From positions 455,001-519,000 of the forward strand of contig CP159373.1 in NCBI GenBank assembly GCA_032595685.2: 64,000 bases of DNA. The letters run 5' to 3'. Each line of letters starts with the position of its first letter. The first letter of the stretch is position 1. The stretch comes from Candidatus Electrothrix aestuarii. Its GTDB lineage: Bacteria; Desulfobacterota; Desulfobulbia; Desulfobulbales; Desulfobulbaceae. The notes beneath the pieces were generated by a model. That model saw nothing but the letters and a program-made list of their open reading frames with translations. It ran no database searches and was not told the DNA's origin. Below are positions 5,287-18,887 of this stretch, piece after piece. Made by a program: the position numbers and the translations under genes.

Positions 5287-6174
5287 GAACCTGTTGAAAA
5301 ACTATTTATACCTATTTAGCATCTTCCTGATTGATGCTATGTAAACCATAGTTTCGGCTGATTGCGCCTGTCGCTCGTAGTCGATCATCAGTCTTCGATC
5401 CCATTGGAACCAGCCGAAGGTCCTTTCAATAATCCAGCGTTTCGGCACCACTTGAAACCCTTTAGTCTTCAAGGTGGGAGCGATTTCCAACCGGCACTGA
5501 AAGGCGCACCATAAATAGTCGGCCAAATCGCCTCGATAAGCGGCATCGGCCCAAACCATTTTAATGGAAGCAAACCACAAAAAAAGAGTTTGAAAGATAG
5601 AGATAGACTGCTTTCCATCTGACAGGTTGGCATCATGAACTTTGACAATTAGCGGAAAACCAAGGGTATCCGAAATTACATGGCGTTTTCGTCCTTTTAC
5701 TTTCTTATTGCCGTCAAAGCCTCGGGTCTCAGCCATCTGTGCAGTTTTGACGGATTGACTATCAATCATAACCGCAGAAGGCTCAGCGTTTTTCCCTTGT
5801 TCCTCTCGCAGGTCCGTGTGAATTGCCTGCTTGACGAGAAACCAGGTTCCATCCCGCTTCCATTTACGAAAGTAATAGTAAACGCTGGTCCACTTTGGGA
5901 AATCATGCGGAATTTCTCGCCATTGACACCCAGTGTGAACCAAGTAAAAAATTGCGTTGAGAATCTCTCTGAGAGCATAAGATCTTGGCCTGCCGGTTTT
6001 TGAAGGAGAGGGGAGAAATTTATTAATAATTTCAAATTGTATATCAGTGAGATCTGTGCTGTAGCTAGCTCGTTCCATGTTGTTTTTCCTTTCGCTGTTT
6101 GATATGGCTGAAAAGAAAATTATGCTATGAAACTGCTTCAGCAGTAAAGTCTCAAAAAGTTTTTAAACAGGCTC
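5287..6174 (-). mobile_element. IS5-family insertion sequence (888 bp), TAA target duplication
   Basis: Imperfect inverted ends begin GAACCTGTTGAAAAACT at 5287 and, read from the other side at 6174, GAGCCTGTTTAAAAACT. The element is flanked by TAA on both sides (5284-5286 and 6175-6177), a 3-bp TNA-type duplication as in the IS1031/ISL2 side of the IS5 family. It carries one transposase gene. It looks recent and complete: the ends, duplication and open frame are all present, and the target gene is still readable on both sides. Confidence 0.9.
5302..6078 (-). CDS. IS5 family transposase (DDE)
   Basis: A 258-residue DDE transposase in one uninterrupted frame. The N-terminal DUF4096-like segment (GRPRSYALREILNAIFYLV, GCQWREIP) is followed by catalytic residues at D106 (VMIDSQSVKT), D178 (VWADAAYRG) and E219 (RWIIERTFGW). 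Length and motif spacing fit one-frame IS5-family enzymes. It sits 15 bp inside the left end and about 96 bp inside the right end of the element. The enzyme should be active if expressed. Confidence 0.95.
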   Translation of the reverse strand: MERASYSTDLTDIQFEIINKFLPSPSKTGRPRSYALREILNAIFYLVHTGCQWREIPHDFPKWTSVYYYFRKWKRDGTWFLVKQAIHTDLREEQGKNAEPSAVMIDSQSVKTAQMAETRGFDGNKKVKGRKRHVISDTLGFPLIVKVHDANLSDGKQSISIFQTLFLWFASIKMVWADAAYRGDLADYLWCAFQCRLEIAPTLKTKGFQVVPKRWIIERTFGWFQWDRRLMIDYERQAQSAETMVYIASIRKMLNRYK

Positions 6175-6401
6175 TAACTTCTTTATTTTTACTCATCTTT
6201 TTCATTTCCCGAACTGTACCTTCAAAAAAATCCAGTTCCTCTCCACAATCACATCTAAAAGATGACGGGAATAATTCAGTTGCCATAAAAGTAGTTTCCT
6301 TCGTTGTGCTAACAGGGTAGAGCCCTGCCATCTATTTATATTGTTACTCGTTATAATGATTTTTCTTTTTTAAACAGATCACATATTCACTTAACTCCAT
6401 G

Positions 6402-6446
6402 AGTGCAGGGCACAGGGAATTTATAATCAAGTGAGGCGCATTGATA
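6402..6446 (+). repeat. Imperfect direct repeat, copy 2 (partner at 5139-5183)
   Basis: Second copy of the repeat: GTGCAGGGCACAGGGAAT, then the shared ATAATCAAGTG and GCATTGAT. With the IS5-family element removed, the copies would be about 375 bp apart with only the 70-codon gene between them. The rest of 6287-6740 is AT-rich; an open frame at 6461-6661 has no ribosome binding site or recognisable product. Confidence 0.6.
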
Positions 6447-6740
6447 TTGCTGTGTAAGAGGTGGAAAATTGGGTCGGCATAACATCAACTCTTATTCGAC
6501 TTGTTCCTTTTAACGCGTCCACTATTTACTTTACGTCAGGGGCAAAAAGTTACTTCGCTGGGGGAGGTAATGCTTGTATGGAAGGTAGTAAAAATAAATC
6601 TGTTTACATTTTTAATCATCAAGTCAAGCCGGAATGGCTATATTGTATCGAAAGATTTTAAAAAAATTTTTAGCTCATCCAAGCGAGGGGATGAAAAATC
6701 CCAGATATCTTTTTCTAGACTTGCTTGAAAATCGCATTTT

Positions 6741-7331
6741 CTACCGGCTTGCTTTTTTTTTTTTTGAGCATGAATCGTAACGTTGATAAATTTGAACCCA
6801 AAATTTATCAAGCTCTTTCTTTGTTATTCCCTTATTGTATCCCCGCAAGCATTCTTCCCAAGCGGCTAAACAATCCGCAAAAGTCGACTCTCGCTTTTTG
6901 ATTGACCGTAATAAAGTCTCCAGCTCCCCATAACCATCAACATTCAAAATATGGCACGAGACCTTGACGCCCAAAGTTTGTGAATCAACCCACTGGTTAA
7001 CTCGTTCTATACATAATGCACCGTCAAATGTTTTCAAAGATTCATTGACAATGGTTAGCCTCTCCTGAACGCCTTTATTGTCTGCATCTACCAAGATGCC
7101 TATTTTTTCGATTCCTCTCTTCTCTATTTCAATAGATATGTCGTTAAGTTTCTTGATGAGTTGATTTTGAGAAAGTCCATTTAAGCATTCATAGTCATCT
7201 ATACAGCAAATAGGAACACCGACGTCAATAGACGCGGAAAGATTCACTTCATGCAAAAGACGATTTATAAATAACCTATCGTTATCACTTTCAACTATTA
7301 GTAAATTACTCACCCCTGAATTTTCCACCAT
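6741..7331 (-). CDS. TOPRIM-like DUF3226-type nuclease subunit of a two-gene ATPase system
   Basis: A 196-residue protein with a TOPRIM-like core: an acidic residue in the first strand (LLIVESDND, E14) and the DxD motif of IGILVDADNKG (D82, D84), as in DUF3226/OLD-type nuclease domains. It follows and overlaps the AAA15-type ATPase gene; ATG at 7331 gives a 26-nt overlap, GTG at 7313 an 8-nt overlap. The sequence is AT-rich and lysine-rich, unlike neighbouring housekeeping genes, which suggests transfer. By analogy with split OLD and PARIS-like systems, I infer that the ATPase senses infection and this subunit cleaves nucleic acid. Confidence 0.72.
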   Translation of the reverse strand: MVENSGVSNLLIVESDNDRLFINRLLHEVNLSASIDVGVPICCIDDYECLNGLSQNQLIKKLNDISIEIEKRGIEKIGILVDADNKGVQERLTIVNESLKTFDGALCIERVNQWVDSQTLGVKVSCHILNVDGYGELETLLRSIKKRESTFADCLAAWEECLRGYNKGITKKELDKFWVQIYQRYDSCSKKKKASR

Positions 7332-8397
7332 GAGTTAAAGTATAATTTAGCTGCTCGTAATCTCTAGCAGATACAGAAATAATATCCTTCTTCACATTTC
7401 GATACATTTCATAGTACATTCCATTAGGATAGGAATCACTCACGTCAATAAGAGATTCGTTGAATGCTTCTACGCACTCCTTTGAATGTGAAGTAATAAA
7501 TAACTGACAATTAGCCTCAGCACTTGCCCTGTAAATGAGCTGCCATAATTTTTTATAATTTGAATAGTGGATTCCATTTTCTATTTCATCAATTAAAAGA
7601 ATGCCATCCTTGCTGGCCCAAATTGCACATAAAATTGCTATATACCTGTTAACTCCTTCCCCTAATGAAGAAAGAAGAGCAGGTGATGTTTTGTTTTTTA
7701 ATTGTACTTTTAGAACTACCCCTCGGTCGGTTGCTCTCTGTTTTATAGAAAGAATATTTTCATCAAAAATGGTCAGGGAATCATTAATGAACTCTTCTCG
7801 ATTTAAATCAATTAACGACCCGTACAAAATAGCCAGGTCATTGTCATCTAATTTTGTCGATTCAATAAAATTAATTGGTTGATATTGGTTACTATCATTT
7901 TTTAATGACATTGAATATGCAGGCCTTCTTCGTAAAAAATAGTTTGCAGGAATAATCTCTTCCTCTTCGTTAACAGAAAACGATAAATCTGATATTGAGA
8001 TCTCTTCATTGTCAATCTCTTTTAAGAAGTTACGAGAGCCTTCGTCAAGTAATGATTTTTGTTTATATTTAGAACCTTTCTCTAATAATGAAATTTTGCA
8101 TTCTCTTGAATTTGTAATAAACTCAGCGGGCTTGCCTACGCCATGCAAAAAATCAATTTCGATGACATTTCTCCTATCTCTGCCGACCTGACGCCGATAA
8201 AGCATTTTGCTGACTTGATATACAAGTTCTCTTATTGATACTGAAACCGCAGAAAGTTCAATTGCTTCCAGTAAAGAAGTTTTACCCACATTGTTCTTTC
8301 CACCTATTAAATTTATTCTTTGAATATCTTTCAGCTCAAAGCTATCAAAGCATTTAAAATGTTTAATATGCAGAGTGTTAATATGTAACTTGGACAT
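7306..8397 (-). CDS. AAA15/OLD-like ATPase, partner of the TOPRIM-like protein
   Basis: A 363-residue ABC/SMC-type ATPase. It opens with the usual LHINTLHIKHFKCFDSFELK strand pair, has Walker A at 32-41 (GGKNNVGKTS), an ABC-like signature region (SSLGEGVNRY) and Walker B ILLIDEIENGIHYS (about 263-276), followed by the H-loop strand LFITSHSKECVEAF. This is the AAA15/AAA21 plan found in OLD, PARIS AriA and similar defence ATPases. It has no fused nuclease; the TOPRIM partner is the next gene. The gene is AT-rich. A perfect 23-bp inverted repeat lies 20 bp before the start codon. Confidence 0.82.
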   Translation of the reverse strand: MSKLHINTLHIKHFKCFDSFELKDIQRINLIGGKNNVGKTSLLEAIELSAVSVSIRELVYQVSKMLYRRQVGRDRRNVIEIDFLHGVGKPAEFITNSRECKISLLEKGSKYKQKSLLDEGSRNFLKEIDNEEISISDLSFSVNEEEEIIPANYFLRRRPAYSMSLKNDSNQYQPINFIESTKLDDNDLAILYGSLIDLNREEFINDSLTIFDENILSIKQRATDRGVVLKVQLKNKTSPALLSSLGEGVNRYIAILCAIWASKDGILLIDEIENGIHYSNYKKLWQLIYRASAEANCQLFITSHSKECVEAFNESLIDVSDSYPNGMYYEMYRNVKKDIISVSARDYEQLNYTLTHGGKFRGE

Positions 8398-8417
8398 ATG
8401 ATTTCCTGGTTTTCTTT

Positions 8418-8440
8418 TCTGATAATCCTACATTATCAGA
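8418..8440. promoter_or_regulatory. Perfect inverted repeat before the AAA15-TOPRIM operon, probable operator or hairpin
   Basis: TCTGATAAT, a 5-nt spacer, then ATTATCAGA: a perfect 9-bp dyad 20 bp upstream of the ATPase start. Size and place fit an autoregulatory operator; a 5' leader hairpin is the alternative. The rest of 8398-8701 is AT-rich with no further gene that I can support. Confidence 0.55.
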
Positions 8441-8701
8441 CAGATGGGATAAGTAACGCTAGTTTATGCCTTATATAACTATAACCACAGTAAAATTCAG
8501 AAGTAAACAATAACTTTTTATTGTAGTTCATCACATATTAATACATAAAAAAATACGTCGACTTAGTATCTATAATTACACCCTAAAATTAAAAACCCCA
8601 TAGCCACACAAATTACAGATCAGGATTGAAGATTTGAACCATCCCCGGCAACAATCATGCAAAACATCATTGCCGGAGATGATTTCTCTGACATTTCGTT
8701 C

Positions 8702-9157
8702 CTATCCTTCACCTCCCCCATCCCCACTCTTCTCCATCTTCCTCCCCGGCCGAAAGGCCTTCATGAAATCAAGCAGGAACTTCCCTTCCTCGGCAATATC
8801 AGGATAGGCATTGGCAAACTCCCGGATACGGCGGGTGGTGCCGTAAAGCCCCACCATGCACCTGTCCGTTCCCCGCAGGCGCTGGTGATAGACCGACTGA
8901 TACAATTTTTCCAGGGCATGTTCCCCCGGTTCCAGGCGAAGGACATCGGCCAGGCCCTCTTGCAGGTCGACAAGGACAGAGGCATCCAGATGCAGGGTCT
9001 CCCCGTGCTGCTGGACGAAACGGGCGGCATCATCAACCACAGCCTGATAGCCAGGCAGGGCCTTGTGCAGGGACTGGACCTCGCTGCCGTCCATCGGTGA
9101 GATGACTTCTACGTTCAGTACTGCGGCAAGCTGTTCAATCAATGTTTGTTCAGGCAT
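8702..9157 (-). CDS. Conserved-looking hypothetical protein, 151 aa
   Basis: The start is set at ATG 9155-9157 (MPEQTLIEQLAAVLNVEV) because AAGGAG precedes it; the longer frame has no ribosome site. The product is acidic and mostly helical by appearance, with no signal peptide or membrane segment, so probably cytoplasmic. The C-terminus is polar and glycine-rich (KMEKSGDGGGEG). I do not recognise a family. It is monocistronic, with AT-rich spacers on both sides. Confidence 0.65.
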   Translation of the reverse strand: MPEQTLIEQLAAVLNVEVISPMDGSEVQSLHKALPGYQAVVDDAARFVQQHGETLHLDASVLVDLQEGLADVLRLEPGEHALEKLYQSVYHQRLRGTDRCMVGLYGTTRRIREFANAYPDIAEEGKFLLDFMKAFRPGRKMEKSGDGGGEG

Positions 9158-9495
9158 GTCAGTTCTCCTTGTAGAAATTTTAAAGAATACCTGCAAAGTA
9201 TTGCGACGCTGCTGTTCTGTCAACAACAAAACAAGGCTATCCCAGAGAGTTTACTTGCAAAAAGAAAGGACGAGAATATGTATTTTTTCTCTGAAAAGGA
9301 AGAAAAAATGCTCCAGGAGAAAGAAAAGATATATTTCCAGAAAGAAAAAATATATCTTTTTATAGTTTCAATGTATCTGGAGATATATTTTTTCTTCGTT
9401 CAAAAAGGCAGGAGCTTCCGTAGATAGTCCCTCGTCAAACTGGAATCACCAGAACACACCCTTTCCTCCATCGCATAGCCTACCAAAAAAAACAA

Positions 9496-9554: not shown

Positions 9555-9839
9555 ATGACAAAGAAAACAATAATTGGTCTCGTTCTTTTTCTTTGCCTTA
9601 TTTTAGCTGACCAAGCCTTTGCCCGCTGGGGTCAGGCAGAAACTTCCTATTGGGGAGCATCAGGAACAGCCCATTGCCATAATAATAACAACGTTTCCGT
9701 GTGGGTGGGCATGAGCTACACACAGCAGAATGATGCACTGACAGAATTATGGAATAAAGCCGTTGCAGCCTGCCAACACCGTGGAGGCTTATTTGATGTC
9801 TCTGGAAGTGTCTATTCCCAATGGGGTCCTTACTGGTAA
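9555..9839 (+). CDS. Small secreted protein, 94 aa, unknown function
   Basis: A clear signal peptide (MTKKTIIGLVLFLCLILA, cleavage likely after AFA) leads into a mature part of about 70 residues rich in tryptophan, asparagine and tyrosine, with two cysteines (AHCHNNNN and AACQHRGG) that could form a disulfide. AAGGAGG stands about 8 nt before the ATG and a good promoter precedes it. I do not know the family. Export to periplasm or outside is well supported; function is not. Confidence 0.75.
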   Translation: MTKKTIIGLVLFLCLILADQAFARWGQAETSYWGASGTAHCHNNNNVSVWVGMSYTQQNDALTELWNKAVAACQHRGGLFDVSGSVYSQWGPYW

Positions 9840-10139: not shown

Positions 10140-10679
10140 ATGAAACGAACAATGATATACGCAGGAGCACTGGCCCTGCTTATCGGCGTGACAGGTCAAG
10201 CACAGGCTACTCGCCTTGGGCTCCACGGCGTATTTTCAAATGGTGGAGATATTGGTGATTCTGAACTGGGCATCGGTGGACAGCTGGAACTCCCTGTTAA
10301 CCCCTTCATGTCTGTTGAGCTTGCAGTCACTCAATTTGGCGATGAAGTAGAAAGCAGCGGCACAACGATGGATCAGGACCTCACCTCAATCGGTCTTTCT
10401 GCCGTCCTCAGAGGACCTCTCGGACCGCAGCTGGAAGGCTACACCCTTTTGGGACTGAACTACAACACCTTTGACATGGATAATATGGAGGTGGATGACG
10501 CTGTAGGTTTTCACATTGGTGCAGGCCTGAACCTTCCTATCGCCTACAACATGGAGCTCTTCAGCGAGTACCGCTATACCTTCCTGGAAACAGAATTTGA
10601 AACAGAAGTCTCAGGTATGGACGAAGATTATGAGTATAACTTCGGTGTAGCAAAACTCGGTCTGAATTTCCTGTTCTAA
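10140..10679 (+). CDS. Outer-membrane beta-barrel protein, 179 aa
   Basis: A signal peptide (MKRTMIYAGALALLIGVTGQ, cleavage after AQA) precedes a mature chain of alternating hydrophobic and polar residues that reads as about eight short beta strands. It ends in LGLNFLF with the C-terminal phenylalanine typical of barrels folded by BamA. The size suits an OmpX/OmpA-like eight-stranded barrel. Acidic loops (MDNMEVDD, GMDEDYEYN) would face outside. The site AAAGGAGAGCAATATG is strong. It is a single gene followed by a terminator. Specific function unknown. Confidence 0.82.
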   Translation: MKRTMIYAGALALLIGVTGQAQATRLGLHGVFSNGGDIGDSELGIGGQLELPVNPFMSVELAVTQFGDEVESSGTTMDQDLTSIGLSAVLRGPLGPQLEGYTLLGLNYNTFDMDNMEVDDAVGFHIGAGLNLPIAYNMELFSEYRYTFLETEFETEVSGMDEDYEYNFGVAKLGLNFLF

Positions 10680-10761: not shown

Positions 10762-11826
10762 TTATCGTTTTACCCGTGCCTTACGGTAGCTGAGTATAAC
10801 TGTCAGGCAGAAAATCAAGCCCAGCAGGGTAGCGATCTGACCGTTAAACACCGGACCGGCTGAAGTACTACGCAGCTGCCAGGTAATAACCATCGCAGCC
10901 CCGGTTACCATACCAAAACAGGTAATCCCCGCATCAACGTCCCCTTCTCCAGCCTTAATAACCTGCCGGAACGGGCATCCATCAACAATCACCGCAGCAA
11001 GTCCGACCAAAACCATAGCCAGGAAACTCCAGAGGTGACTATGATGGGCACCGGGTTGGGCCTCCATACCGAGGTTGAACTGACCACTGACCAGAGACAC
11101 CATCAGGGCAGAGACAAAGATGGCAATCACGCCGCTGAACAGGGTCTTTTCCCGGAACAGGAAAAAATTGCGGATTCCACCGGTAATACAGAGCCCGGAA
11201 CGTTGAGCTAGGCCACCGATCAGCAAGCCCACAGCCAAGGATATCCACAAGGGTGCATGTTGCGCTGCTGGCCCTGAAAACCCCTGCTGTACAAAAGCTG
11301 GTTTAAGAAAAAGGAAAAGCAGCAAAAGAAAACCTATACCTGGCAGGATATACCCGTTGATGGTGGGCAAATTCTGAGCACGGTCCAGGACTGAGCCAGC
11401 TCTGAGATATTTCCCTCCCAACCAGATACCGAAAAGCATACCAAGTAAGGCAGCAACAGCGGTCAGGTCCCCGGCTCCAAGACGCAGAAGCATTTTAATC
11501 GGACAACCGATAAAAACCCCGCAACCCACAATCATGAAAAATCCGAGAAAGAAACGAATCAGCGGCGAGGAACCTCCTGTCACCCGAAAACGTCGATTCT
11601 GCTTGGCCATAAAAAAGGCCCCTAACAGAAAACCAACCAGTTCTGGGCGAATATAGCTCATGCGGACACTATCCTGTAACTGAAGCGCACCAGCCAAGTT
11701 CTCCAAAAAACATGAAATACAGATACCTGAGTTAACAGGGTTGCCGAACAGGGTGAGCATAACAGCGCCACCGCCAAGTACTATCCCTGTTATAATTGAA
11801 AGATCTGGTAATTTAAAGCGACTCAC
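10762..11826 (-). CDS. yedE: YedE/YeeE family sulfur or selenium compound transporter
   Basis: A 354-residue inner-membrane protein with about nine or ten hydrophobic helices and the duplicated YeeE/YedE cysteine motifs. Each half has an early Cys loop (NSGICISCF, C36/C39; RSGLCITGGIRN, C213) and a GCP loop (GCGVFIGCPIKMLLRLGAGD, C102/C108; VDGCPFRQVIKAGEGD, C284). This pattern fits the YedE branch linked to selenium metabolism; related YeeE proteins take up thiosulfate. No TusA/YedF-like partner lies beside it. It is the last gene of the minus-strand cluster and starts immediately after the TPR gene stop. Substrate is inferred only to the level of sulfur or selenium species. Confidence 0.85.
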   Translation of the reverse strand: MSRFKLPDLSIITGIVLGGGAVMLTLFGNPVNSGICISCFLENLAGALQLQDSVRMSYIRPELVGFLLGAFFMAKQNRRFRVTGGSSPLIRFFLGFFMIVGCGVFIGCPIKMLLRLGAGDLTAVAALLGMLFGIWLGGKYLRAGSVLDRAQNLPTINGYILPGIGFLLLLFLFLKPAFVQQGFSGPAAQHAPLWISLAVGLLIGGLAQRSGLCITGGIRNFFLFREKTLFSGVIAIFVSALMVSLVSGQFNLGMEAQPGAHHSHLWSFLAMVLVGLAAVIVDGCPFRQVIKAGEGDVDAGITCFGMVTGAAMVITWQLRSTSAGPVFNGQIATLLGLIFCLTVILSYRKARVKR

Positions 11827-12387
11827 TTATTCACACCCACCTGCTACTCTTCGTTGTAAATAGAGAAGCTCATCAAGAGCCTTTCTCACCTCTTCATCCT
11901 TTGGCCGCGATTTCAGTTCCTGAGCCAGTGTTGTTTTGGCTGCCACCAGGTGATCCATTATTTCTTTTCCAAGAAAAAGAGGGGTGTTATTATCAACAAA
12001 ATCAGGTTCACTATCCACAGCCTGACGGTAGCTGGAAATAGCTTCCACCATTTTGCCGGTATTATACTGCAAGCGCGCCTGATAAATGAAAGAACGCGGA
12101 TTATCAGGATGATCCCTCTGCACCTTTTGCAGAACCTCTTCTGCGGCCGTATACATTCGCATCCCAAAAAGGCGCTGAACCTCTTTGTAGATTTTCTTAT
12201 CCTGCTCTAACCGCTTCTGGTACATTTCGTCAGCCAGTTCCTTTCCACTGACACTTGCACCTTTCTCCTGCAAGGCCATTGCGCCATGCTGGGCCAACAT
12301 CACCGCAGTGATAACAAGCAACACAGCCAGCGAAACCGTGGTGAAGCTATCCAGGGCGTTGCCGAAAAATTTATCTTTTATAGCCAT
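11827..12387 (-). CDS. Membrane-anchored TPR protein, 186 aa
   Basis: An N-terminal transmembrane anchor (SFTTVSLAVLLVITAVMLAQ, about 13-32) is followed by a periplasmic part with at least two TPR-like helix pairs (LFGMRMYTAAEEVLQKVQRD, YNTGKMVEAISSYRQAVDSE) and a C-terminal helix. Such proteins act as assembly or docking scaffolds. It is directly followed, with no gap, by yedE, so the two are translated together. A 167-bp spacer with a nested stem around 12490-12535 separates it from the beta-helix gene. Its partner is not known. Confidence 0.75.
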   Translation of the reverse strand: MAIKDKFFGNALDSFTTVSLAVLLVITAVMLAQHGAMALQEKGASVSGKELADEMYQKRLEQDKKIYKEVQRLFGMRMYTAAEEVLQKVQRDHPDNPRSFIYQARLQYNTGKMVEAISSYRQAVDSEPDFVDNNTPLFLGKEIMDHLVAAKTTLAQELKSRPKDEEVRKALDELLYLQRRVAGGCE

Positions 12388-12554
12388 AACTGTCCATGAG
12401 ATGAACTTCCCACCTCAGAGGAGAAGGGAATGGAAAAAATAGTTTATTGAATCGTACCACAAACAACAAGTGCCTGATAAAAAAAATATCCGGCTGAAAG
12501 CACGCCGTACTTCAGCGACCTCCAACCGGACAATACAAGGTACTGGAATCCTTG

Positions 12555-13526
12555 TTAGTGAAGACCAGCTCCGCTCACAGGTGCAGCATAAAAATCGGTC
12601 AGATCAACCTTACCAAGGGTTTCTTCCCGCCCTTTATCCATGACCTTTTCCATGATTTTTTTCTCATCGGTTGTGCCCCACCAGTTATTGCGGGCCACGA
12701 TATCATCAGCCTGACCTTCTAACATGGAAATATTGTAGTTTTCATTATCTGCAATATTATTATCCTGGAGCATGGCTTCTTTGGTAGCGTAAAAGATCAC
12801 ACCTTTACCGTTCTTGTTGATGTTATTAAAACGGATAGCAGCACGACCACCCTTTTTCACATACACGCCAAAGAACTCATTGCCACTGATTTCGTTATGA
12901 GCAACCGGTGAAGCAGTCCCGCCGCCAACAATAATGCCGCCGCCGTTCTCTGTCACCAGATTATAGAGAACCGGCATAGAACATCTCACTGGGACGTCTG
13001 GCAAGTTTTTACTGCCAATGGCGGTTCCGTTATGCTTGAAGGTATTGTTTACAACAACAATCTGGGAGGAATGGCAATGCACAGCGGTCTGCGCATACAT
13101 CAGCTCGCAGTACTCAATTAAGTTATCGATAGAACCGTTGAAATTAATTGCTCCCCAATCCCCAGGAGCTGGTTTTTCCTCAGCACTGGTAAAAACTATT
13201 TTTTTCTCTTTTGTTCCTTGGGCATATAATTTTCCCAAGACAAAAATCTCAGCGCGGGAGAAGTGGTTATCCTTGTCCGTATACCTCTTGTCCGGCCCAA
13301 AGGCCTCAATCTTGGCAAAACGCACTGTGGTTCCAGGCATGATGATCAAAGTTGCCTCTTTGGCAACCTCCACATCACCTTTCACCAGAATATCCCCGGA
13401 CCAGGTTGTATCCTTGTCAATAACCCCTTTTTCTACAACCAGCTCTTTGGCAAAACCCGACTGGAGGGTCAGCAGGGTCGCTGCAAGCCCGGCAAGCAGC
13501 GACAGCATTATTTTTTTACTCATCAT
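12555..13526 (-). CDS. Secreted right-handed parallel beta-helix protein (NosD-like)
   Basis: A 323-residue protein with a signal peptide (KKIMLSLLAGLAATLLTLQS, cleavage after GFA). The mature chain has repeated short beta coils with NxF/NNx ladders (IVVNNTFKHNGTAI, VAHNEISGNEFFGVYV, IRFNNINKNGKGVIFY, MLQDNNIADNENYNIS), typical of NosD/CASH-type beta-helices. An N-terminal stretch (LVKGDVEVAKEATLIIMPGT) resembles cell-surface sugar-binding helices, and WWGTTDEKKI is a common motif near the end. It lies 31 bp after the PhnD-like gene. In nitrous oxide systems NosD helps metal-site assembly; here the role is open. Confidence 0.82.
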   Translation of the reverse strand: MMSKKIMLSLLAGLAATLLTLQSGFAKELVVEKGVIDKDTTWSGDILVKGDVEVAKEATLIIMPGTTVRFAKIEAFGPDKRYTDKDNHFSRAEIFVLGKLYAQGTKEKKIVFTSAEEKPAPGDWGAINFNGSIDNLIEYCELMYAQTAVHCHSSQIVVVNNTFKHNGTAIGSKNLPDVPVRCSMPVLYNLVTENGGGIIVGGGTASPVAHNEISGNEFFGVYVKKGGRAAIRFNNINKNGKGVIFYATKEAMLQDNNIADNENYNISMLEGQADDIVARNNWWGTTDEKKIMEKVMDKGREETLGKVDLTDFYAAPVSGAGLH

Positions 13527-13557
13527 TGGTGTATCTCACTCAAGTGTAAAAGAAGGA

Positions 13558-14520
13558 TTAATACTTATTGTACGGAGGCATGTTGCAGAGTTTGAGATCT
13601 TCCCGGATAGCATCGTATTCGCTATCAACAACCGGCTGAAAACCGTCAATGAGCATCCGTTTCAGCACCTTGAGGGTCTCTCCATCCACAGTTGCAACCT
13701 CATCATCCTTCAGGTTAAGGAGAAGATCTTTCATTTTCTCCTTCAAAGCAGCATCGATTTCAGCCCGGGCACCAACGGTACAATAGGGCATCGGTTCACT
13801 TTCAGCGATAATATTATAATCATTCAGATCAATGATATTCTCTTCAACCAGACGGTCCAGATCGATGCGAGGCGCTGCACCAACATCATATTTTCCGTAT
13901 TCCACCCCGTAAATTACCTTATCATGCTTGGCTGCACCGGCAGGAATAGTATAGGAAGAGAAATCGGTTTCCGGATCAAAGTTATTTTCCAGCAGCAGAG
14001 CATACTGGGCCATATAACCAAAAGGAGCCAAGGCCGGACCAAAGACCATAGATTTGCCACGCATGTCTTCGATGGTCTCAATACCGCTGTCTTTCCGGGC
14101 AATAATCGTTCCTGTGGCCTTATAACCGTTTCTTCCGCGAATATCAGTAAGCAGTAAATCAGCCTTATATTTTTCTTTCAGTACAATCGCAACAACAGGG
14201 TTAACATGGAAGAAGTCAACTTCCTTATTTTTGATCAGGCTCTCAAACTCAAAGGTGTTTTTGAGGATCATCTCAACCCGGCGGCCAAGCTTTTTCTCAA
14301 GATAGGCGGTAAAAGGAGAAAAACGTTCCTCGGACAGCTTACGACTGTCGCAGATCATATAACCAAAACGAAGCGGCTTTTCATTGCTTACCGGAGTTAC
14401 TGCGGGCTGGTCCTGTTTTTCCGCAACAGCAGCGGGCTTCTCAGTCGCCTCATCAGTCTTGCATGCCTGAAGAGAGAAAACGGCAGAGAACAGAAGAATA
14501 CACAGAGCTATTTTTTTCAT
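13558..14520 (-). CDS. PhnD-like phosphate/phosphonate-type substrate-binding lipoprotein
   Basis: A 320-residue lipoprotein: signal peptide with lipobox SLQAC, a TDEATEKPA-type linker, then a type 2 periplasmic-binding fold of the PhnD/phosphite family. Family features include the early strand LRFGYMICDSRK, ERFSPFTAYLEKKLGRRVE, DFFHVNPVVAIVL and VVFGPALAP-like MRGKSMVFGPALAPFGYMAQ. No ABC permease or ATPase is encoded in the cluster, so it is an orphan binding protein. It may sense or deliver a ligand to the neighbouring envelope proteins. Two spaced cysteines late in the chain (PYCTVG, LCNMPPYNKY) are additional features. Confidence 0.8.
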   Translation of the reverse strand: MKKIALCILLFSAVFSLQACKTDEATEKPAAVAEKQDQPAVTPVSNEKPLRFGYMICDSRKLSEERFSPFTAYLEKKLGRRVEMILKNTFEFESLIKNKEVDFFHVNPVVAIVLKEKYKADLLLTDIRGRNGYKATGTIIARKDSGIETIEDMRGKSMVFGPALAPFGYMAQYALLLENNFDPETDFSSYTIPAGAAKHDKVIYGVEYGKYDVGAAPRIDLDRLVEENIIDLNDYNIIAESEPMPYCTVGARAEIDAALKEKMKDLLLNLKDDEVATVDGETLKVLKRMLIDGFQPVVDSEYDAIREDLKLCNMPPYNKY

Positions 14521-14674
14521 GTCGTTTATGTCTTAGATAGAAATAGAGAGTTTCGCAGGATACAGTCCTCCCTGCCGGTATTACCGAGCAGAGAGAACGT
14601 CCTTTTATTTATTTACGTCTGCTGAAATGTATGGACCGATAGGTCTTGAAAAAAGCAGAGGATACCGAGAGGGT

Positions 14675-14698
14675 CTCAGTAACTCAGGAGTTACTGAG
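14675..14698 (-). promoter_or_regulatory. Perfect hairpin across a stop codon inside the envelope cluster
   Basis: CTCAGTAACT, 4-nt loop, AGTTACTGAG: a 10-bp perfect stem that includes the stop codon of the TPR gene (14684-14686). No T-run follows on the minus strand, so it is more likely an mRNA processing or stability element than a full terminator. The 163-bp gap to the PhnD-like gene follows. Confidence 0.5.
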
Positions 14699-15178
14699 CA
14701 GTTGAATCTCTTGCTGAATTTCGTCAGCTGCTTCCGGGGTCGCCGCAAGAGCTTCTGCGGTTTCCAGAGACTTTTGAGCCAGCTCAGGCTGATTCAGCTG
14801 CTGATGGGCCAAAGAAAGATGAACATGGAGCATCATATCCTTCTCATTCAATGCCAGCGCCCGATCCAGATATTTCACTGCCTCGGCGCTTTTCTTTTGC
14901 CGTAGCAAAACGATTCCCATACCATCCAGGGCATCAAAATTATTTGCATCCAGTTTCAGAACTTCCTCAAGCTGCTGCGTCGCTTCGTTCAGCTCGTTGG
15001 TCCGAAAGTAGGCCATAGCCAAGCTGTTTTTGGTAGAGATATCATTCTCATCCATATAGAGCAGCATTTTATACTGCATAATCTGAACCGAATCCGGGAG
15101 CTTGGAAATCCCTCCATGTGCGGCGGCAGAGCTCACTGAAAGCAACAGAATCAGTAAGGTTAAAAACAGGTTTCGCAT
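14684..15178 (-). CDS. Periplasmic TPR protein, 164 aa
   Basis: A signal peptide (MRNLFLTLLILLLSVSSAAA) is followed by about three TPR units: YKMLLYMDENDISTKNSLAM, FRTNELNEATQQLEEVLKLD, LRQKKSAEAVKYLDRALALN and a fourth partial pair. GAGGAAG precedes the ATG. It is likely a periplasmic scaffold or chaperone similar in size to NrfG/PilF-like proteins. It sits between the OpuAC-like and PhnD-like genes of the cluster, which suggests it binds one of them. Confidence 0.78.
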   Translation of the reverse strand: MRNLFLTLLILLLSVSSAAAHGGISKLPDSVQIMQYKMLLYMDENDISTKNSLAMAYFRTNELNEATQQLEEVLKLDANNFDALDGMGIVLLRQKKSAEAVKYLDRALALNEKDMMLHVHLSLAHQQLNQPELAQKSLETAEALAATPEAADEIQQEIQLLSNS

Positions 15179-15225
15179 TTCTTCCTCTTTATTGTTCCTC
15201 TTTATAAATAGCGAATTATCTGCGA

Positions 15226-15804
15226 TCAGATCAAATTTTTGGTCTTGAGAAAATCCTTGGCAACACTCTCCGCATCACTGCCCTCTGACTGCTGCAACAG
15301 CTGCTCCAGAGAAGAATTATCAATCAGATTACCGAGTTTATTAATAACACGGTGAAGGATCGGAAATTTAACCAGTGACTCACGGTTTGCTACAGGTACG
15401 GCCATAGAGGCATTATCCTGGGCAACCGGTCCCTTATAACCAAAGGGTTTCAACCAAACCAGATTCTCATTTTCAATATAGTATTCTTTGACCAGGCTAT
15501 AGCTTTCGTCATCATCGCTGCCCTGGTTATCACTGCTCATACCGGAGAGACCAGTATTTACGTAATTGATACAGAGATCAGTAGGACACTGGGTTCCAAC
15601 ATCCTCCGTGCTGTTCACAACATTCACAGTGGTACCGGTACGCTCTGTGATATAGGTAGCCATGATATGAGCGACTAGCTGCTGTTCAGCAGACTCGTTG
15701 ACTGTCAGATTCAGAATACGGCCAACACAGCTATAGCTTGTCGAGGTGAAGGTCAGCAGCAAAAAGCAAGATGCTGAGAACAGTAGTGCAGTTTTTCGTC
15801 GCAT
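15226..15804 (-). CDS. OpuAC-like substrate-binding domain protein, orphan
   Basis: A periplasmic protein of 192 aa from ATG 15804; AAGGAG sits 10 nt before it, so the upstream ATG at 15834 is less likely. Signal peptide MRRKTALLFSASCFLLLTF with cleavage near SYSC. The mature start CVGRILNLTVNESAEQQLVA and ITERTGTTVNVV resemble the first lobe of glycine-betaine (OpuAC) binding proteins, and the later LVWLKPFGYKGP plus AVPVANRESLVKFPILHRVI resemble the second. It is shorter than full OpuAC proteins (about 270 aa) and there is no transporter partner. Ligand unknown; with so few residues a redesigned or sensory role is possible. Confidence 0.6.
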   Translation of the reverse strand: MRRKTALLFSASCFLLLTFTSTSYSCVGRILNLTVNESAEQQLVAHIMATYITERTGTTVNVVNSTEDVGTQCPTDLCINYVNTGLSGMSSDNQGSDDDESYSLVKEYYIENENLVWLKPFGYKGPVAQDNASMAVPVANRESLVKFPILHRVINKLGNLIDNSSLEQLLQQSEGSDAESVAKDFLKTKNLI

Positions 15805-15933
15805 TTTCAGGTAACTCCTTTTTTTATTTATCATGATGAATATCTCCCTTTTTCAAAAGGAAGATCTCGTCCTGTTTACATTATTTTTCGCATAATCCAC
15901 AACAGATATCCTACGGAAAAAATATCATATTCC

Positions 15934-17325
15934 CTAGAGCCAGTCCAGCAGTTTCCACCAGAAAAAATTCAGCGGCAGTAGGATAAAAACGCTTATCAGG
16001 GCCAGAAGTAAACATATTTTCGCAGCATGAAAAAGTTTTTCTCCAGAGAGCTGCATCCCCACCACAATCGGTGGTGCCTGATAGGGCAGCATGATGGTGG
16101 AAAAGCCCAGGACCTGCATCATAAGCAGGGTCTGAACCGGCAAACCAGTGGCCTGCGCCAAGCTATCTGATAATGGGGTAAGGACAGCTGGGACCGCAGG
16201 AAGGGTGGTCAACATGCCGGTGAATGCCGAAGCAAGACTGACCGACATATAATTGACAAAATCCTGCTGTTCTCCCAGGGGGAGCAAGGCTGTTATTCCA
16301 TCGGCGATATTGCGGCCTAACCCGGTATGATTAATCACTCCGCCAAGTCCAAGAATACCAGCAACAAAAACGATCGCTCCCCAATTAATTTTCTGATTAA
16401 AATCCTTTTTAGCAACGATATCAACGCCCGGCATCAGGAGGATAAGAGCACCTCCCAGGGCCACCCAAGCCGGAGATACATGATGAAGAAAATCGGTAAT
16501 CCATAGGCCGAGCATACCGACCAACACCAAGGAAAGAATCAGCTCATTACGGGAGAATGTATTTTTTTCCTGTTCCTCCTGTGCCGGTGTTACCAAGGGC
16601 TGATCAGGAAAGAAGAAACGAATAAGTGCGATGATCAATGCAGCCTTCACAAGGCTCAGCAAGGGAAAATGAAGCAAAAGGTACGTTCCATAGAAGATCG
16701 AAATATGATACTGAGTCTCCGCCATACCCACCAGGACCATATTGGGCACATTGGCAGGCAAGATGCCGAAGGCCGGGATATAGGTTCCCAGGATAATAGC
16801 CAGCAGCACCCCGATTCTCCCCCGGGATCCCTCCTTGAAGCCAAAATGATCAGCAACAGACAGGGCAATGGGGGTCAGCAGGACAACCCGGCCCATGGCT
16901 GAAGGCATAAGAAAACTGAATAAAACCCCAGCAAGCACCAAGCCACTGATGATTTTCAGGTAGCTCCCGTGTAAGAGGATTGCTGCATAGCGGGCAAGGC
17001 GGGCCCCAAGCCCGGTGGAGGAAATAGCGACCCCGATGACCAGCCCCCCAAAAATCAGCCAAATAGCGGCGGAACCAAAACCAGCAAAGACAACAGCTGG
17101 CCCGGCAAGCGAGAACAGCATTGCTAACAGGAAAAACAGCAGGGCGGTAAGGTGCTCCGGGATCAAGGCCGTTGCCCAAAACACCAAGGTGAGCAGGGTA
17201 AGGACACCGGCTTTGGCCGGTACCGAGGAACAAAAGGAAGAAAATTTCAGCAGCGAGACAGCTCCGACAAGGGCAAGAACAACAAAGAAGGGCCGGAGGG
17301 AAAGCTTATGTGTGGCAGATGACAT
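15934..17325 (-). CDS. SLC13/DASS family sodium:anion symporter
   Basis: A 463-residue inner-membrane protein with about eleven or twelve helices. It has the CitT/SLC13 pattern of two inverted halves, with helical hairpins near GSAAIWLIFGGLVIGVAISS and NWGAIVFVAGILGLGGVINH. Members import dicarboxylates, sulfate or related anions with sodium. It is the first gene of the minus-strand cluster, 129 bp ahead of the OpuAC-like start. Given YedE at the far end, a sulfur oxyanion is an attractive but unproven substrate. The divergent wzz-like gene starts 194 bp upstream. Confidence 0.82.
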   Translation of the reverse strand: MSSATHKLSLRPFFVVLALVGAVSLLKFSSFCSSVPAKAGVLTLLTLVFWATALIPEHLTALLFFLLAMLFSLAGPAVVFAGFGSAAIWLIFGGLVIGVAISSTGLGARLARYAAILLHGSYLKIISGLVLAGVLFSFLMPSAMGRVVLLTPIALSVADHFGFKEGSRGRIGVLLAIILGTYIPAFGILPANVPNMVLVGMAETQYHISIFYGTYLLLHFPLLSLVKAALIIALIRFFFPDQPLVTPAQEEQEKNTFSRNELILSLVLVGMLGLWITDFLHHVSPAWVALGGALILLMPGVDIVAKKDFNQKINWGAIVFVAGILGLGGVINHTGLGRNIADGITALLPLGEQQDFVNYMSVSLASAFTGMLTTLPAVPAVLTPLSDSLAQATGLPVQTLLMMQVLGFSTIMLPYQAPPIVVGMQLSGEKLFHAAKICLLLALISVFILLPLNFFWWKLLDWL

Positions 17326-17519: not shown

Positions 17520-18887
17520 TTGCAAAAAATAGAACTCGATATTTCCATGCCTGCCCTCTCTGTCTCGTTTAAAAAACATGCCCTGGGCATGTTTGTCGTC
17601 TTTTGTCTTGTCGCCTCAGCAGTCGCAGCAATCATCCTGCTTCGCCCCCCTGTGTTTGAAGCAAGGGCCCGCATCAATATACCAGAAAAGAAGATAAGCG
17701 AAACCAGCAAGCAGCAAAGCGAAGAAAATACCCCTCAGCAGCAAGGCGTGACGCTGCAAACAGCCACAGAAATACTCCAAGGCAATGTCTTGGCAGAGCA
17801 AGTTCTGAATAGCATAGGGTTCAAAGTCCTTTTTCCTGATCTTGCTCAACAGGCAGTAAATCAGGAGGAATTCCGAACCCAGGCCCTTGCCACCTTTCAG
17901 CAGAATCTGAGCATCACACCAATTCAGGGCAGCCGAATCATACATATCAGCTTCCAGCATAGTCAGGCAGACCTGTCTGCGCGAGTTATTGAGACCATCC
18001 TCCAGCTCTTTCAAAAGAAATTCGAGGAACTTCAGCCTGTGCAATTGCTCATGCCGAGCAAGGAACTTCCTATATATCGCCAGGAAATGTTCCAGGCCGA
18101 AAACATCTTATCCATATTCCAACAGCGGAATCAGATGCTTGTTTCAGGGGAAGAGCAGGAAAAGATCAGGACTCTCCATGCACAAACACAGGAATCCTTC
18201 TCCGCAGAACAGGAGCAGCTCCAGGCACTTTCGCAGCAACTCAAGGCCTCAGAAAAGCATTTTGCCAGCCTGCTCAAACCTGCTGAGCAGAAGAGAGAGG
18301 ATGACTTCACCCAGGAACGGCAGGATATTATCCGACTCAGAATCTACGAACAGGATCTCAAAGAAAAATACGGCAAGGAAAGCACTGGGAACCGGCTTAT
18401 CAAGAATGTTCGTCTTCAGGTCACCTCTCTGAAAAAGGAGCTGTATACCGAGGCGGGTCTCTCAGCAAGCGAACAGGAGGCGGCGGTAAAGGCGGAAGAC
18501 CAGTTAGTTCTCACCAAGCTTGCTTATCGTAAACAGCAGAAAAAAACAGACGCTCTGCAACGCCAGCTCCATCAAACGGAAAGCAAAATACAAGATATAA
18601 CTGAACAGGAGAAACAGCTTACTGCCATGCGCCAGCAGGCAGAAAGCGCGCGAAAAAGATACACCGAGCTGGTACAGGAGTTCGATGCGGAGCAGGAGGC
18701 CAGACGGCTTGCCAGTCAGATACAGGTTCTTGAAAAACCTGTGATTCCGCTTGCACCGATCAAACCGAAAAAAACATCTGCGCTCATTCTGGGCCTGATC
18801 TTTGGTCTGGTCGGCAGCCTCTTATACGGTGGGATACAGCTGCTTCGGGCAGGAAAGACAGAGAAGGAAGACAGGGCTACTTCCTGA
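17520..18887 (+). CDS. Wzz/GumC-type chain-length determinant protein
   Basis: A 455-residue polysaccharide co-polymerase-like protein: transmembrane helix 1 (GMFVVFCLVASAVAAIILL, about 24-43), the Wzz signature domain (PVFEARARINIPEKK), a long periplasmic coiled coil (about 190-400, rich in Q, E, K), the GNVR-type C-terminal segment (QVLEKPVIPLAPIKPKKTSA) and helix 2 (LILGLIFGLVGSLLYGG). There is no C-terminal kinase. Starts at 17520 (TTG) or 17547 (ATG, MPALSVSF) are both possible, without a strong ribosome site. No glycosyltransferases adjoin it, so it may act with a remote polysaccharide locus. Confidence 0.8.
   Translation: MQKIELDISMPALSVSFKKHALGMFVVFCLVASAVAAIILLRPPVFEARARINIPEKKISETSKQQSEENTPQQQGVTLQTATEILQGNVLAEQVLNSIGFKVLFPDLAQQAVNQEEFRTQALATFQQNLSITPIQGSRIIHISFQHSQADLSARVIETILQLFQKKFEELQPVQLLMPSKELPIYRQEMFQAENILSIFQQRNQMLVSGEEQEKIRTLHAQTQESFSAEQEQLQALSQQLKASEKHFASLLKPAEQKREDDFTQERQDIIRLRIYEQDLKEKYGKESTGNRLIKNVRLQVTSLKKELYTEAGLSASEQEAAVKAEDQLVLTKLAYRKQQKKTDALQRQLHQTESKIQDITEQEKQLTAMRQQAESARKRYTELVQEFDAEQEARRLASQIQVLEKPVIPLAPIKPKKTSALILGLIFGLVGSLLYGGIQLLRAGKTEKEDRATS

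What the first reader, a model, noticed from the sequence alone, without database searches (positions are those of the whole stretch)
10762..17325. Seven-gene envelope cluster: anion symporter, two orphan binding proteins, two TPR proteins, beta-helix protein, YedE
The minus-strand genes encode a SLC13 symporter, an OpuAC-like and a PhnD-like binding protein without any ABC permease or ATPase, two TPR scaffolds, a NosD-like beta-helix and a YedE transporter. Six of the seven are membrane or periplasmic with no enzyme in sight. Binding proteins that feed scaffolds and a cofactor-type transporter suggest uptake or assembly of a sulfur or selenium species, or of a periplasmic structure. I know of no described system with this set.
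Basis: inference. Interest (0 to 1): 0.8.

Follow-up and report, generated by a model that had tools for sequence, protein, structure and literature searches.

The report
Cable-bacterium nickel–sulfur cofactor assembly gene cluster
Seven neighbouring cell-envelope genes of a cable bacterium travel, across related uncultured sulfur bacteria, with a nickel exporter and a set of sulfur-handling enzymes, which makes them a good but untested candidate for building the unusual nickel–sulfur cofactor of these bacteria's living electrical wires.

Summary
Seven minus-strand genes at 10762-17325 form one block, kept in the same order in 13 of 57 searched genomes, including the Electrothrix and Electronema genera. 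The reading changes in four ways. (1) There are enzymes: in relatives the block runs on into a Se/S carrier, a YjeF-type kinase, a ThiS/MoaD sulfur carrier, a JAMM protease, a GDH-like dehydrogenase, two adenylosuccinate-lyase-type enzymes and ThiF. The window's genome keeps JAMM, GDH, both lyases and the kinase at other loci. (2) The OpuAC-like protein is only lobe 1 of a binding protein. (3) Selenium is unlikely: all three Electronema-genus genomes keep the block without selD above cut-off. (4) Nickel is tied in: a NicO/RcnA exporter occurs in 22 of 28 genomes with the system and 0 of 29 without. Best reading: the envelope half of an undescribed system that makes an organosulfur ligand and assembles it, probably with nickel, in the periplasm; in cable bacteria the nickel bis(dithiolene) cofactor is the obvious product. 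That step is inference: non-cable relatives carry the system too, and its dedicated ThiS/ThiF were not found in cable genomes.

The parts
15934..17325 (-). SLC13/DASS-type anion transporter, first gene of the block; the place of the usual SNT motif reads MPS(A/S)MGR in all 17 aligned members
   Evidence: Pfam PF03600 5e-30, PF00939 8e-30; TIGR00785 132 bits, below cut-off 198.6; motif (the SNT rule is recalled)
15226..15834 (-). half binding protein: lobe 1 only of a ProX/OpuAC-type protein, exported, Cys36 near the presumed mature N-terminus invariant in 24 aligned sequences
   Evidence: PF04069 C-terminal match only; AF2 pLDDT 85.7; PDB profile hits to chain residues about 8-109 and 229-289 only; Foldseek best E 8e-11; conservation
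14684..15178 (-). exported TPR protein (TPR1)
   Evidence: Pfam TPR families; kept in order
13558..14520 (-). PhnD-family lipoprotein without an ABC permease or ATPase in the block; Cys57 and Cys247 conserved
   Evidence: PF12974 1.6e-48; TIGR03431 108 bits, below 261; PDB relatives PtxB, ArrX, HtxB, PhnD; conservation at 93% or more of 28 sequences
12555..13526 (-). exported right-handed beta-helix (NosD-like) protein; Cys140, His88, His150, His152, His210 conserved
   Evidence: PF13229, PF05048 about 4e-12; TIGR04247 25.8 bits, below 300; (29 sequences)
11827..12387 (-). membrane-anchored TPR protein (TPR2), conserved Cys185 one residue before the C-terminus
   Evidence: TPR_16 1e-6 but below its cut-off; (29 sequences)
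10762..11826 (-). YedE/YeeE-family transporter with six conserved Cys (36, 39, 102, 108, 213, 284); starts directly after TPR2
   Evidence: PF04143 2.8e-13; TIGR04112 396.5 bits, cut-off 200; (28 sequences)

Best explanation
The seven genes are the envelope half of a two-compartment system. YedE brings in a reduced sulfur species. DUF3343, ThiS/ThiF and JAMM hand on the sulfur. A GDH-like dehydrogenase and two fumarase/adenylosuccinate-lyase-type enzymes build a small organosulfur ligand in the cytoplasm. The SLC13-type carrier moves the ligand or a precursor, NicO/RcnA puts nickel into the periplasm, and the exported PhnD-like, half-ProX, beta-helix and TPR proteins, several with a conserved Cys, hold, assemble and deliver the product. 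In cable bacteria the likely product is the nickel bis(dithiolene) cofactor of the conductive fibres. Shown: gene order, families, co-occurrence, the half binding protein, the JAMM fold (model), ThiS family, intact lyase signatures. Inferred: the ligand's identity, the direction of each transporter, nickel as the metal, delivery to fibres.
For: Order of the seven genes in 13 of 57 genomes, with unlike flanks outside the genus in the stretches compared. The string continues from YedE to ThiF in 11 of 73 named loci, all 11 with an 84- to 94-residue ThiS ending PIAGG between kinase and JAMM. OpuAC-like, GDH-like (E<1e-70) and JAMM occur together in 26 of 57 genomes and are all absent in 29; Fisher 2e-15 for OpuAC/GDH, 1.5e-8 by genus, although in Electrothrix they lie at separate loci. 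NicO (E<1e-30) in 22 of 28 genomes with and 0 of 29 without OpuAC, p 1e-10, and within the cluster in genus g5 and several distant loci. JAMM fold. Lyase signatures kept. The window's genome keeps the YjeF-type kinase (82%), both lyases and a NicO with a long His-rich loop. Published: the cofactor resembles Ni bis(1,2-dithiolene) and little is known of its synthesis genes (PMC10959288, passages); expanded-loop rcnA noted in cable bacteria (PMC11247825, passages).
Against: The cofactor is reported only from cable bacteria (PMC12093952, passages), yet many non-cable Desulfobacterota MAGs carry the system. The dedicated ThiS was found in 6 of 57 genomes (one weakly) and in no cable genome; in the 7 cable genomes searched ThiF is only a 33-35% homologue, though a general ThiS-ThiF-JAMM locus exists. 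NicO at E<1e-30 is missing in G003, G009, G017, G030, G040 and G051, and rcnA is reported absent from cable strain YB6, which has the cofactor. The GDH-lyase core also occurs in actinobacteria and others without any envelope gene or NicO nearby. No expression, metal or ligand data.
Confidence: 0.45

Rival explanations
1. The system makes an organosulfur redox cofactor or carrier for envelope electron transfer in general (working beside multihaem cytochromes), with nickel incidental or only for homeostasis.
For: Multihaem proteins (3 to 59 CXXCH, some cut by contig ends) lie within the distant-type loci in 9 of 30 loci; one carrier, L168, is MAG C00003106, recalled as SEEP-SRB1, partner of methane-oxidising archaea; NicO missing in 6 of 28.
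Against: NicO never occurs (E<1e-30) in the 29 genomes without the system; no frame with two or more CXXCH in window 1-30000 or in the Electrothrix, Electronema-genus, G033, G017 and g5 loci L034-L047.
Confidence: 0.3
2. A sulfur-containing metallophore (nickelophore) or thiol made for uptake or export, read out by the PhnD-like and half-ProX proteins.
For: Binding-protein folds; GDH-lyase pairs, some with JAMM, in Streptomyces and other actinobacteria.
Against: No TonB receptor or ABC permease among the seven genes; one binding protein lacks lobe 2.
Confidence: 0.12
3. Selenium trafficking, as the YedE family name and DUF3343 suggest.
For: TIGR04112 396 bits over a cut-off of 200; DUF3343 Se/S carrier in relatives' clusters.
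Against: All three Electronema-genus genomes plus G013 and G045 keep the system without selD above cut-off; 27 genomes with selD above cut-off lack the OpuAC-like protein.
Confidence: 0.04
4. Ordinary uptake and assimilation of a sulfur or phosphorus nutrient.
For: Transporter and binding-protein families; cable bacteria also have a ThiS-ThiF-JAMM string beside a sulfite-reductase-like gene (partly by eye).
Against: No ABC partner in the block; close co-occurrence with GDH and JAMM; by title, the 47 Desulfobacterota-like records of the seeded scan are MAGs or Candidatus, with no cultured non-cable species.
Confidence: 0.09

Closest known systems
NosD/NosFY/NosL maturation of nitrous oxide reductase (recalled)
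   Same: exported beta-helix protein handling a metal-sulfur cofactor in the periplasm
   Different: no ABC partner in the block; NosD model 25.8 bits against a cut-off of 300
Bacterial coenzyme M route, XcbD/XcbC (NCBIfam NF052536, NF052535)
   Same: adenylosuccinate-lyase-type enzymes; XcbD is the second-best NCBIfam match of both Desulfobulbales lyases
   Different: 430-466 bits against 600; other Xcb enzymes not looked for
ThiS/ThiF/JAMM thiocarboxylate sulfur transfer (MoaD-type; thioplatensimycin-type routes, PMC6006322 seen in a listing only)
   Same: ThiS ending GG, E1-like ThiF, JAMM fold in one string
   Different: coupled to GDH plus two lyases and to an envelope block; dedicated pair not found in cable genomes
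YTD / yeeE-tusA-dsrEFH type II cluster of cable bacteria (PMC13047784, PMC13293266, passages)
   Same: YeeE/YedE transporter beside sulfur-handling genes
   Different: no tusA or dsrE among these seven genes; other partners
ArrX, PtxB, HtxB and PhnD binding proteins
   Same: sequence relatives of the PhnD-like lipoprotein in the PDB; ArrX acts without a transporter (recalled)
   Different: no ABC or kinase partner in the block; below the PhnD equivalog cut-off

Membership tests
NosD (TIGR04247) | score over curated cut-off | tested here: not met
   25.8 vs 300 bits
NosD system | NosF/NosY ABC partner beside it | tested here: not met
   none of the seven genes
PhnD phosphonate-binding protein (TIGR03431) | score over curated cut-off | tested here: not met
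   108.3 vs 261.1 bits; the wider Pfam PF12974 is met, 165.7 vs 27
OpuAC/ProX binding protein | two lobes closing on a ligand | tested here: not met
   only lobe 1 segments match, in line with the 202-residue model
YedE selenium transporter (TIGR04112) | score over curated cut-off | tested here: met
   396.5 vs 200 bits
YedE selenium transporter (TIGR04112) | goes with selenophosphate synthetase (basis of the family, recalled) | tested here: not met
   5 of 28 carriers lack selD over cut-off, incl. 3 of 3 of the Electronema genus; 23 of 28 have it
SLC13/DASS | Pfam cut-off | tested here: met
   PF03600, PF00939
SLC13/DASS | TIGR00785 cut-off and SNT motif (motif recalled) | tested here: not met
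   132 vs 198.6; MPS(A/S)MGR in 17 of 17
JAMM protease (gene found beside GDH in relatives) | JAMM/MPN fold and HxH...D metal motif | tested here: met
   26-row alignment and Foldseek of the model; Pfam hits marginal or none
ThiS/MoaD carrier (relatives' clusters) | Pfam ThiS cut-off and C-terminal GG | tested here: met
   31-37 vs 22.5 bits in 3 of 3 tested; the set was picked by its GG end; not found in cable genomes
XcbD 3-sulfopropionylcysteine synthase | score over curated cut-off | tested here: not met
   430-466 vs 600 bits in Desulfobulbales lyases
Ni bis(dithiolene) cofactor biosynthesis | product identity | not testable with these tools
   no biochemical data

The most novel reading that the evidence does not exclude
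[quoted passage not shown] Related uncultured sulfur bacteria would then make the same or a sister cofactor, so molecular wires of this chemistry would not be unique to cable bacteria.
Probability: 0.33. Interest if true: 0.97.

Novelty: categorically new. Interest (0 to 1): 0.83.

Why it matters
The genes that make the conducting cofactor of cable bacteria are stated to be little known (PMC10959288, passages). A defined set of 16 genes (seven here, nine in relatives' clusters), tied to a nickel exporter by co-occurrence, turns that open question into a short list for expression, reconstitution and Raman tests, and points to uncultured relatives in which to look for the same cofactor.

Tried and rejected
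Selenium role: tested with selD and set aside. Normal solute uptake through two binding proteins: set aside, one has only lobe 1 and no ABC partner is in the block. NosD proper: below cut-off. A ThiS of the A2 type in cable genomes: none at E<=0.001; the Pfam family finds only other ThiS/MoaD genes there. Looking for the natural product of the actinobacterial GDH-lyase module: two paper searches gave nothing usable (0 papers; 6 papers, seen as a listing, none recognisable as this set). A coenzyme M search gave nothing recognisable on these genes. Promoter and terminator scans were not informative: 14 promoter-like sites against a mean of 8.5 (sd 3.2), 7 terminator-like against 7.8. No gene trees were built. 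SLC13 direction and PhnD ligand could not be resolved.

Thresholds and dropped rows: for the co-occurrence test GDH was counted at E<1e-70; four genomes with only weaker hits (G008, G021, G032, G051; 29-33% identity) were left out, and with them in, the table is 28/0/3/26, p 3e-13. NicO was counted at E<1e-30, leaving out weak hits in G008, G040, G056. Both thresholds were set after seeing the hits. Grouping of the 73 named loci into 47 Desulfobacterota-like and 26 other was done by hand from titles and content, and counts per gene there are lower bounds because contigs end. Some named loci and G-handle genomes are the same genome.
Full report
What is there. The window lies at C1:455001-519000 of a 5.11 Mb one-contig genome. 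Genus g10 matches Candidatus Electronema (G026:C1, 231,366 bases = E. aureum NQJD01000001; G034:C10, 56,968 bases = Electronema KV; the third, G016, is titled only Desulfobulbaceae bacterium).

Is it a unit? The OpuAC-like protein was found in 28 of 57 searched genomes, 23 of 44 good-quality ones. All seven genes stand in the same order in 13 of the 57: seven of the eight in the genus, three of the Electronema genus, G033, and G023 and G031, where a NicO gene is inserted. Identity to the window ranges from 100% in the sister genome to 37% while the order stays. In ten ~20 kb stretches compared, window ORFs outside the block and the Wzz-like gene at 17520-18887 matched nothing in the six loci from other genera. 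G017 and G011 show six of the seven, G013 five and G051 four (OpuAC, PhnD, TPR2, YedE), several at contig ends.

The enzymes that the window hides. Past YedE, relatives carry a DUF3343 Se/S-carrier protein, a YjeF-type kinase, sometimes a diacylglycerol kinase, then JAMM, a GDH-like dehydrogenase and two lyases. A ThiS/MoaD protein of about 87 residues ending PIAGG lies between kinase and JAMM (Pfam ThiS 31-37 bits in three members, cut-off 22.5), and ThiF follows the second lyase. The string from YedE to ThiF is complete in 11 of 73 named loci; several of these are the same genomes as G handles. The JAMM identity rests on fold: AF2 pLDDT 93 and Foldseek matches to JAMM proteases, among them Pyrococcus JAMM1 with its carrier SAMP2, with the HxH...D residues invariant in 26 sequences. 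The lyases keep the SxxMPxKxNP-type signature. The Desulfobulbales ones fall between adenylosuccinate lyase, muconate cycloisomerase, nitrosuccinate lyase and XcbD models without reaching a cut-off; of the outsiders, L203's passes NF006500 (659 vs 626) and L178's just passes purB (327.5 vs 326.2). In the PDB the closest to the first lyase are trans-aconitate decarboxylase, a fumarate lyase and muconate cycloisomerases. In Anaerosacchariphilus (L178) the module is ThiF-rhodanese, JAMM, lyase, GDH, lyase, ThiS; in Marinobacter (L188) it includes a ThiS-ThiF-rhodanese fusion and a second JAMM; in a Streptomyces (L203) GDH-lyase stands beside a cystathionine-beta-synthase-type enzyme and genes that by eye look like CysD and CysN. 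None of the 26 loci outside the Desulfobacterota-like group shows an envelope gene of the block or NicO.

In the window's genome JAMM, GDH and the first lyase are at C1:1835190-1838484, the second lyase at 1260037-1261476, the kinase at 397239-398099 with a DUF3343-like gene beside it by eye and NicO at 1391497-1392486 with a long His-rich loop. Although split, they persist together: OpuAC-like, GDH-like and JAMM co-occur in 26 of 57 genomes, G045 lacks JAMM, G051 has only OpuAC at the strict threshold, and 29 have none.

Nickel. The NicO/RcnA gene sits between the second lyase and OpuAC in several distant loci (for example L057, L175, L177, L186) and between OpuAC and TPR1 in genus g5. Over 57 genomes it is found at E<1e-30 in 22 of the 28 OpuAC carriers and in 0 of the other 29 (p 1e-10; 12 of 16 against 0 of 17 genera, p 5e-6). 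PMC11247825 (passages) reports rcnA as absent from other Desulfobulbales; in this larger set it is present, but at this threshold only where this system is. Species relatedness inflates these p-values; the genus-level ones are the safer guide.

Selenium. The YedE label TIGR04112 is well over cut-off, and 23 of 28 carriers do have selD. But selD over cut-off is missing in G013, G016, G026, G034 and G045, all carriers, including the three Electronema-genus genomes. Sulfur is the simpler cargo.

The binding proteins. Profile comparison shows that the OpuAC-like protein has the two segments that make lobe 1 of ProX-type proteins and nothing of lobe 2, which fits the 202-residue model and its gapped Foldseek matches, so it cannot close on a ligand in the usual way. 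Its Cys36 is invariant in 24 sequences. Conserved Cys or His (93% or more of 28-29 sequences) also mark PhnD (C57, C247), the beta-helix protein (C140, H88, H150, H152, H210), TPR2 (C185) and YedE (six Cys). This suits handing over a thiol or a metal, but is not proof of it.

How it may work. See the best explanation. The chemistry that I favour, as inference only: fumarase-type lyases add sulfur across an unsaturated dicarboxylate, the GDH-like enzyme oxidises at the alpha carbon, and the result is an ene-dithiol that could chelate nickel; an SLC13-family carrier would suit a dicarboxylate-like ligand. The published Raman work calls the fibre cofactor similar to nickel bis(1,2-dithiolene) and says that little is known of the genes for its synthesis (PMC10959288, passages). 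The main weaknesses are the presence in non-cable MAGs, the ThiS/ThiF pair not found in cable genomes, and NicO gaps, which however match the reported lack of rcnA in the cofactor-bearing strain YB6 (PMC12093952, passages). In the distant type, multihaem proteins lie within the locus in 9 of 30 loci, while none with two or more CXXCH was seen in window 1-30000 or in loci L034-L047.

What is in print. Paper searches showed no description of this cluster in the listings. PMC11976967 was seen as abstract, outline, section 14 and a term search: its nickel-protein search gives 16 proteins in four categories (transport, regulator, insertion/maturation, CO dehydrogenase) and section 14 names none of these seven genes; its dataset was not readable here. 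PMC13047784, PMC13293266 and PMC12998232 (passages) treat another YedE cluster, with tusA and dsrE-type genes. A term search of PMC10553843 found none of NosD, nickel, TPR, cable bacteria, phosphonate or dithiolene, and one of PMC5539420 none of NosD, nickel, tetratricopeptide, adenylosuccinate or C00003106. The library holds open-licence PMC papers only, no preprints and here no supplements, so a description elsewhere is possible.

Verdict. As a conserved system I found no description of it in the searches above; as the pathway for the wire cofactor it is a strong candidate, not a demonstrated one.

Noticed in passing
window 17520-18887 (+): A Wzz/GNVR chain-length-determinant-like gene stands divergent to the SLC13 gene and keeps that place in 11 of the 12 loci with the whole block (97% in the sister genome, 22-49% elsewhere; not found in L043). 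It may belong to the system.
   Followed up: partly
window about 5302-9427: ORFs here, incl. an ATP-binding-type protein (by eye) at 7306-8397, partly in a low-GC stretch (0.355 at 6001-8000), have no match in the stretch from the near-identical sister genome G007 or the other loci compared, so this looks like a recent insertion.
   Followed up: no
window 9555-9839 and 10140-10679 (+): A small exported protein and an outer-membrane beta-barrel convergent with YedE are kept beside the block in most but not all Electrothrix loci (not in L039) and not in other genera.
   Followed up: no
L057:13544-18745 (-): Open-ended protein of at least 1733 residues with 59 CXXCH motifs within a distant-type locus; 9 of 30 loci hold such multihaem genes.
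   Followed up: partly
L263:6557-10985: The window's genome has a ThiS-ThiF-JAMM string followed by a sulfite-reductase-like gene (JAMM and reductase by eye); it might supply the sulfur in place of the missing dedicated ThiS.
   Followed up: partly
L203 (and L197 by eye): Actinobacterial clusters with a cystathionine-beta-synthase-type enzyme, GDH-like, lyase and SDR-like genes, in L203 also CysD/CysN-like genes by eye; perhaps an unknown sulfur natural product.
   Followed up: no
L218:9489-10601 (-): NicO/RcnA of the window's genome has a very long His-rich loop.
   Followed up: partly
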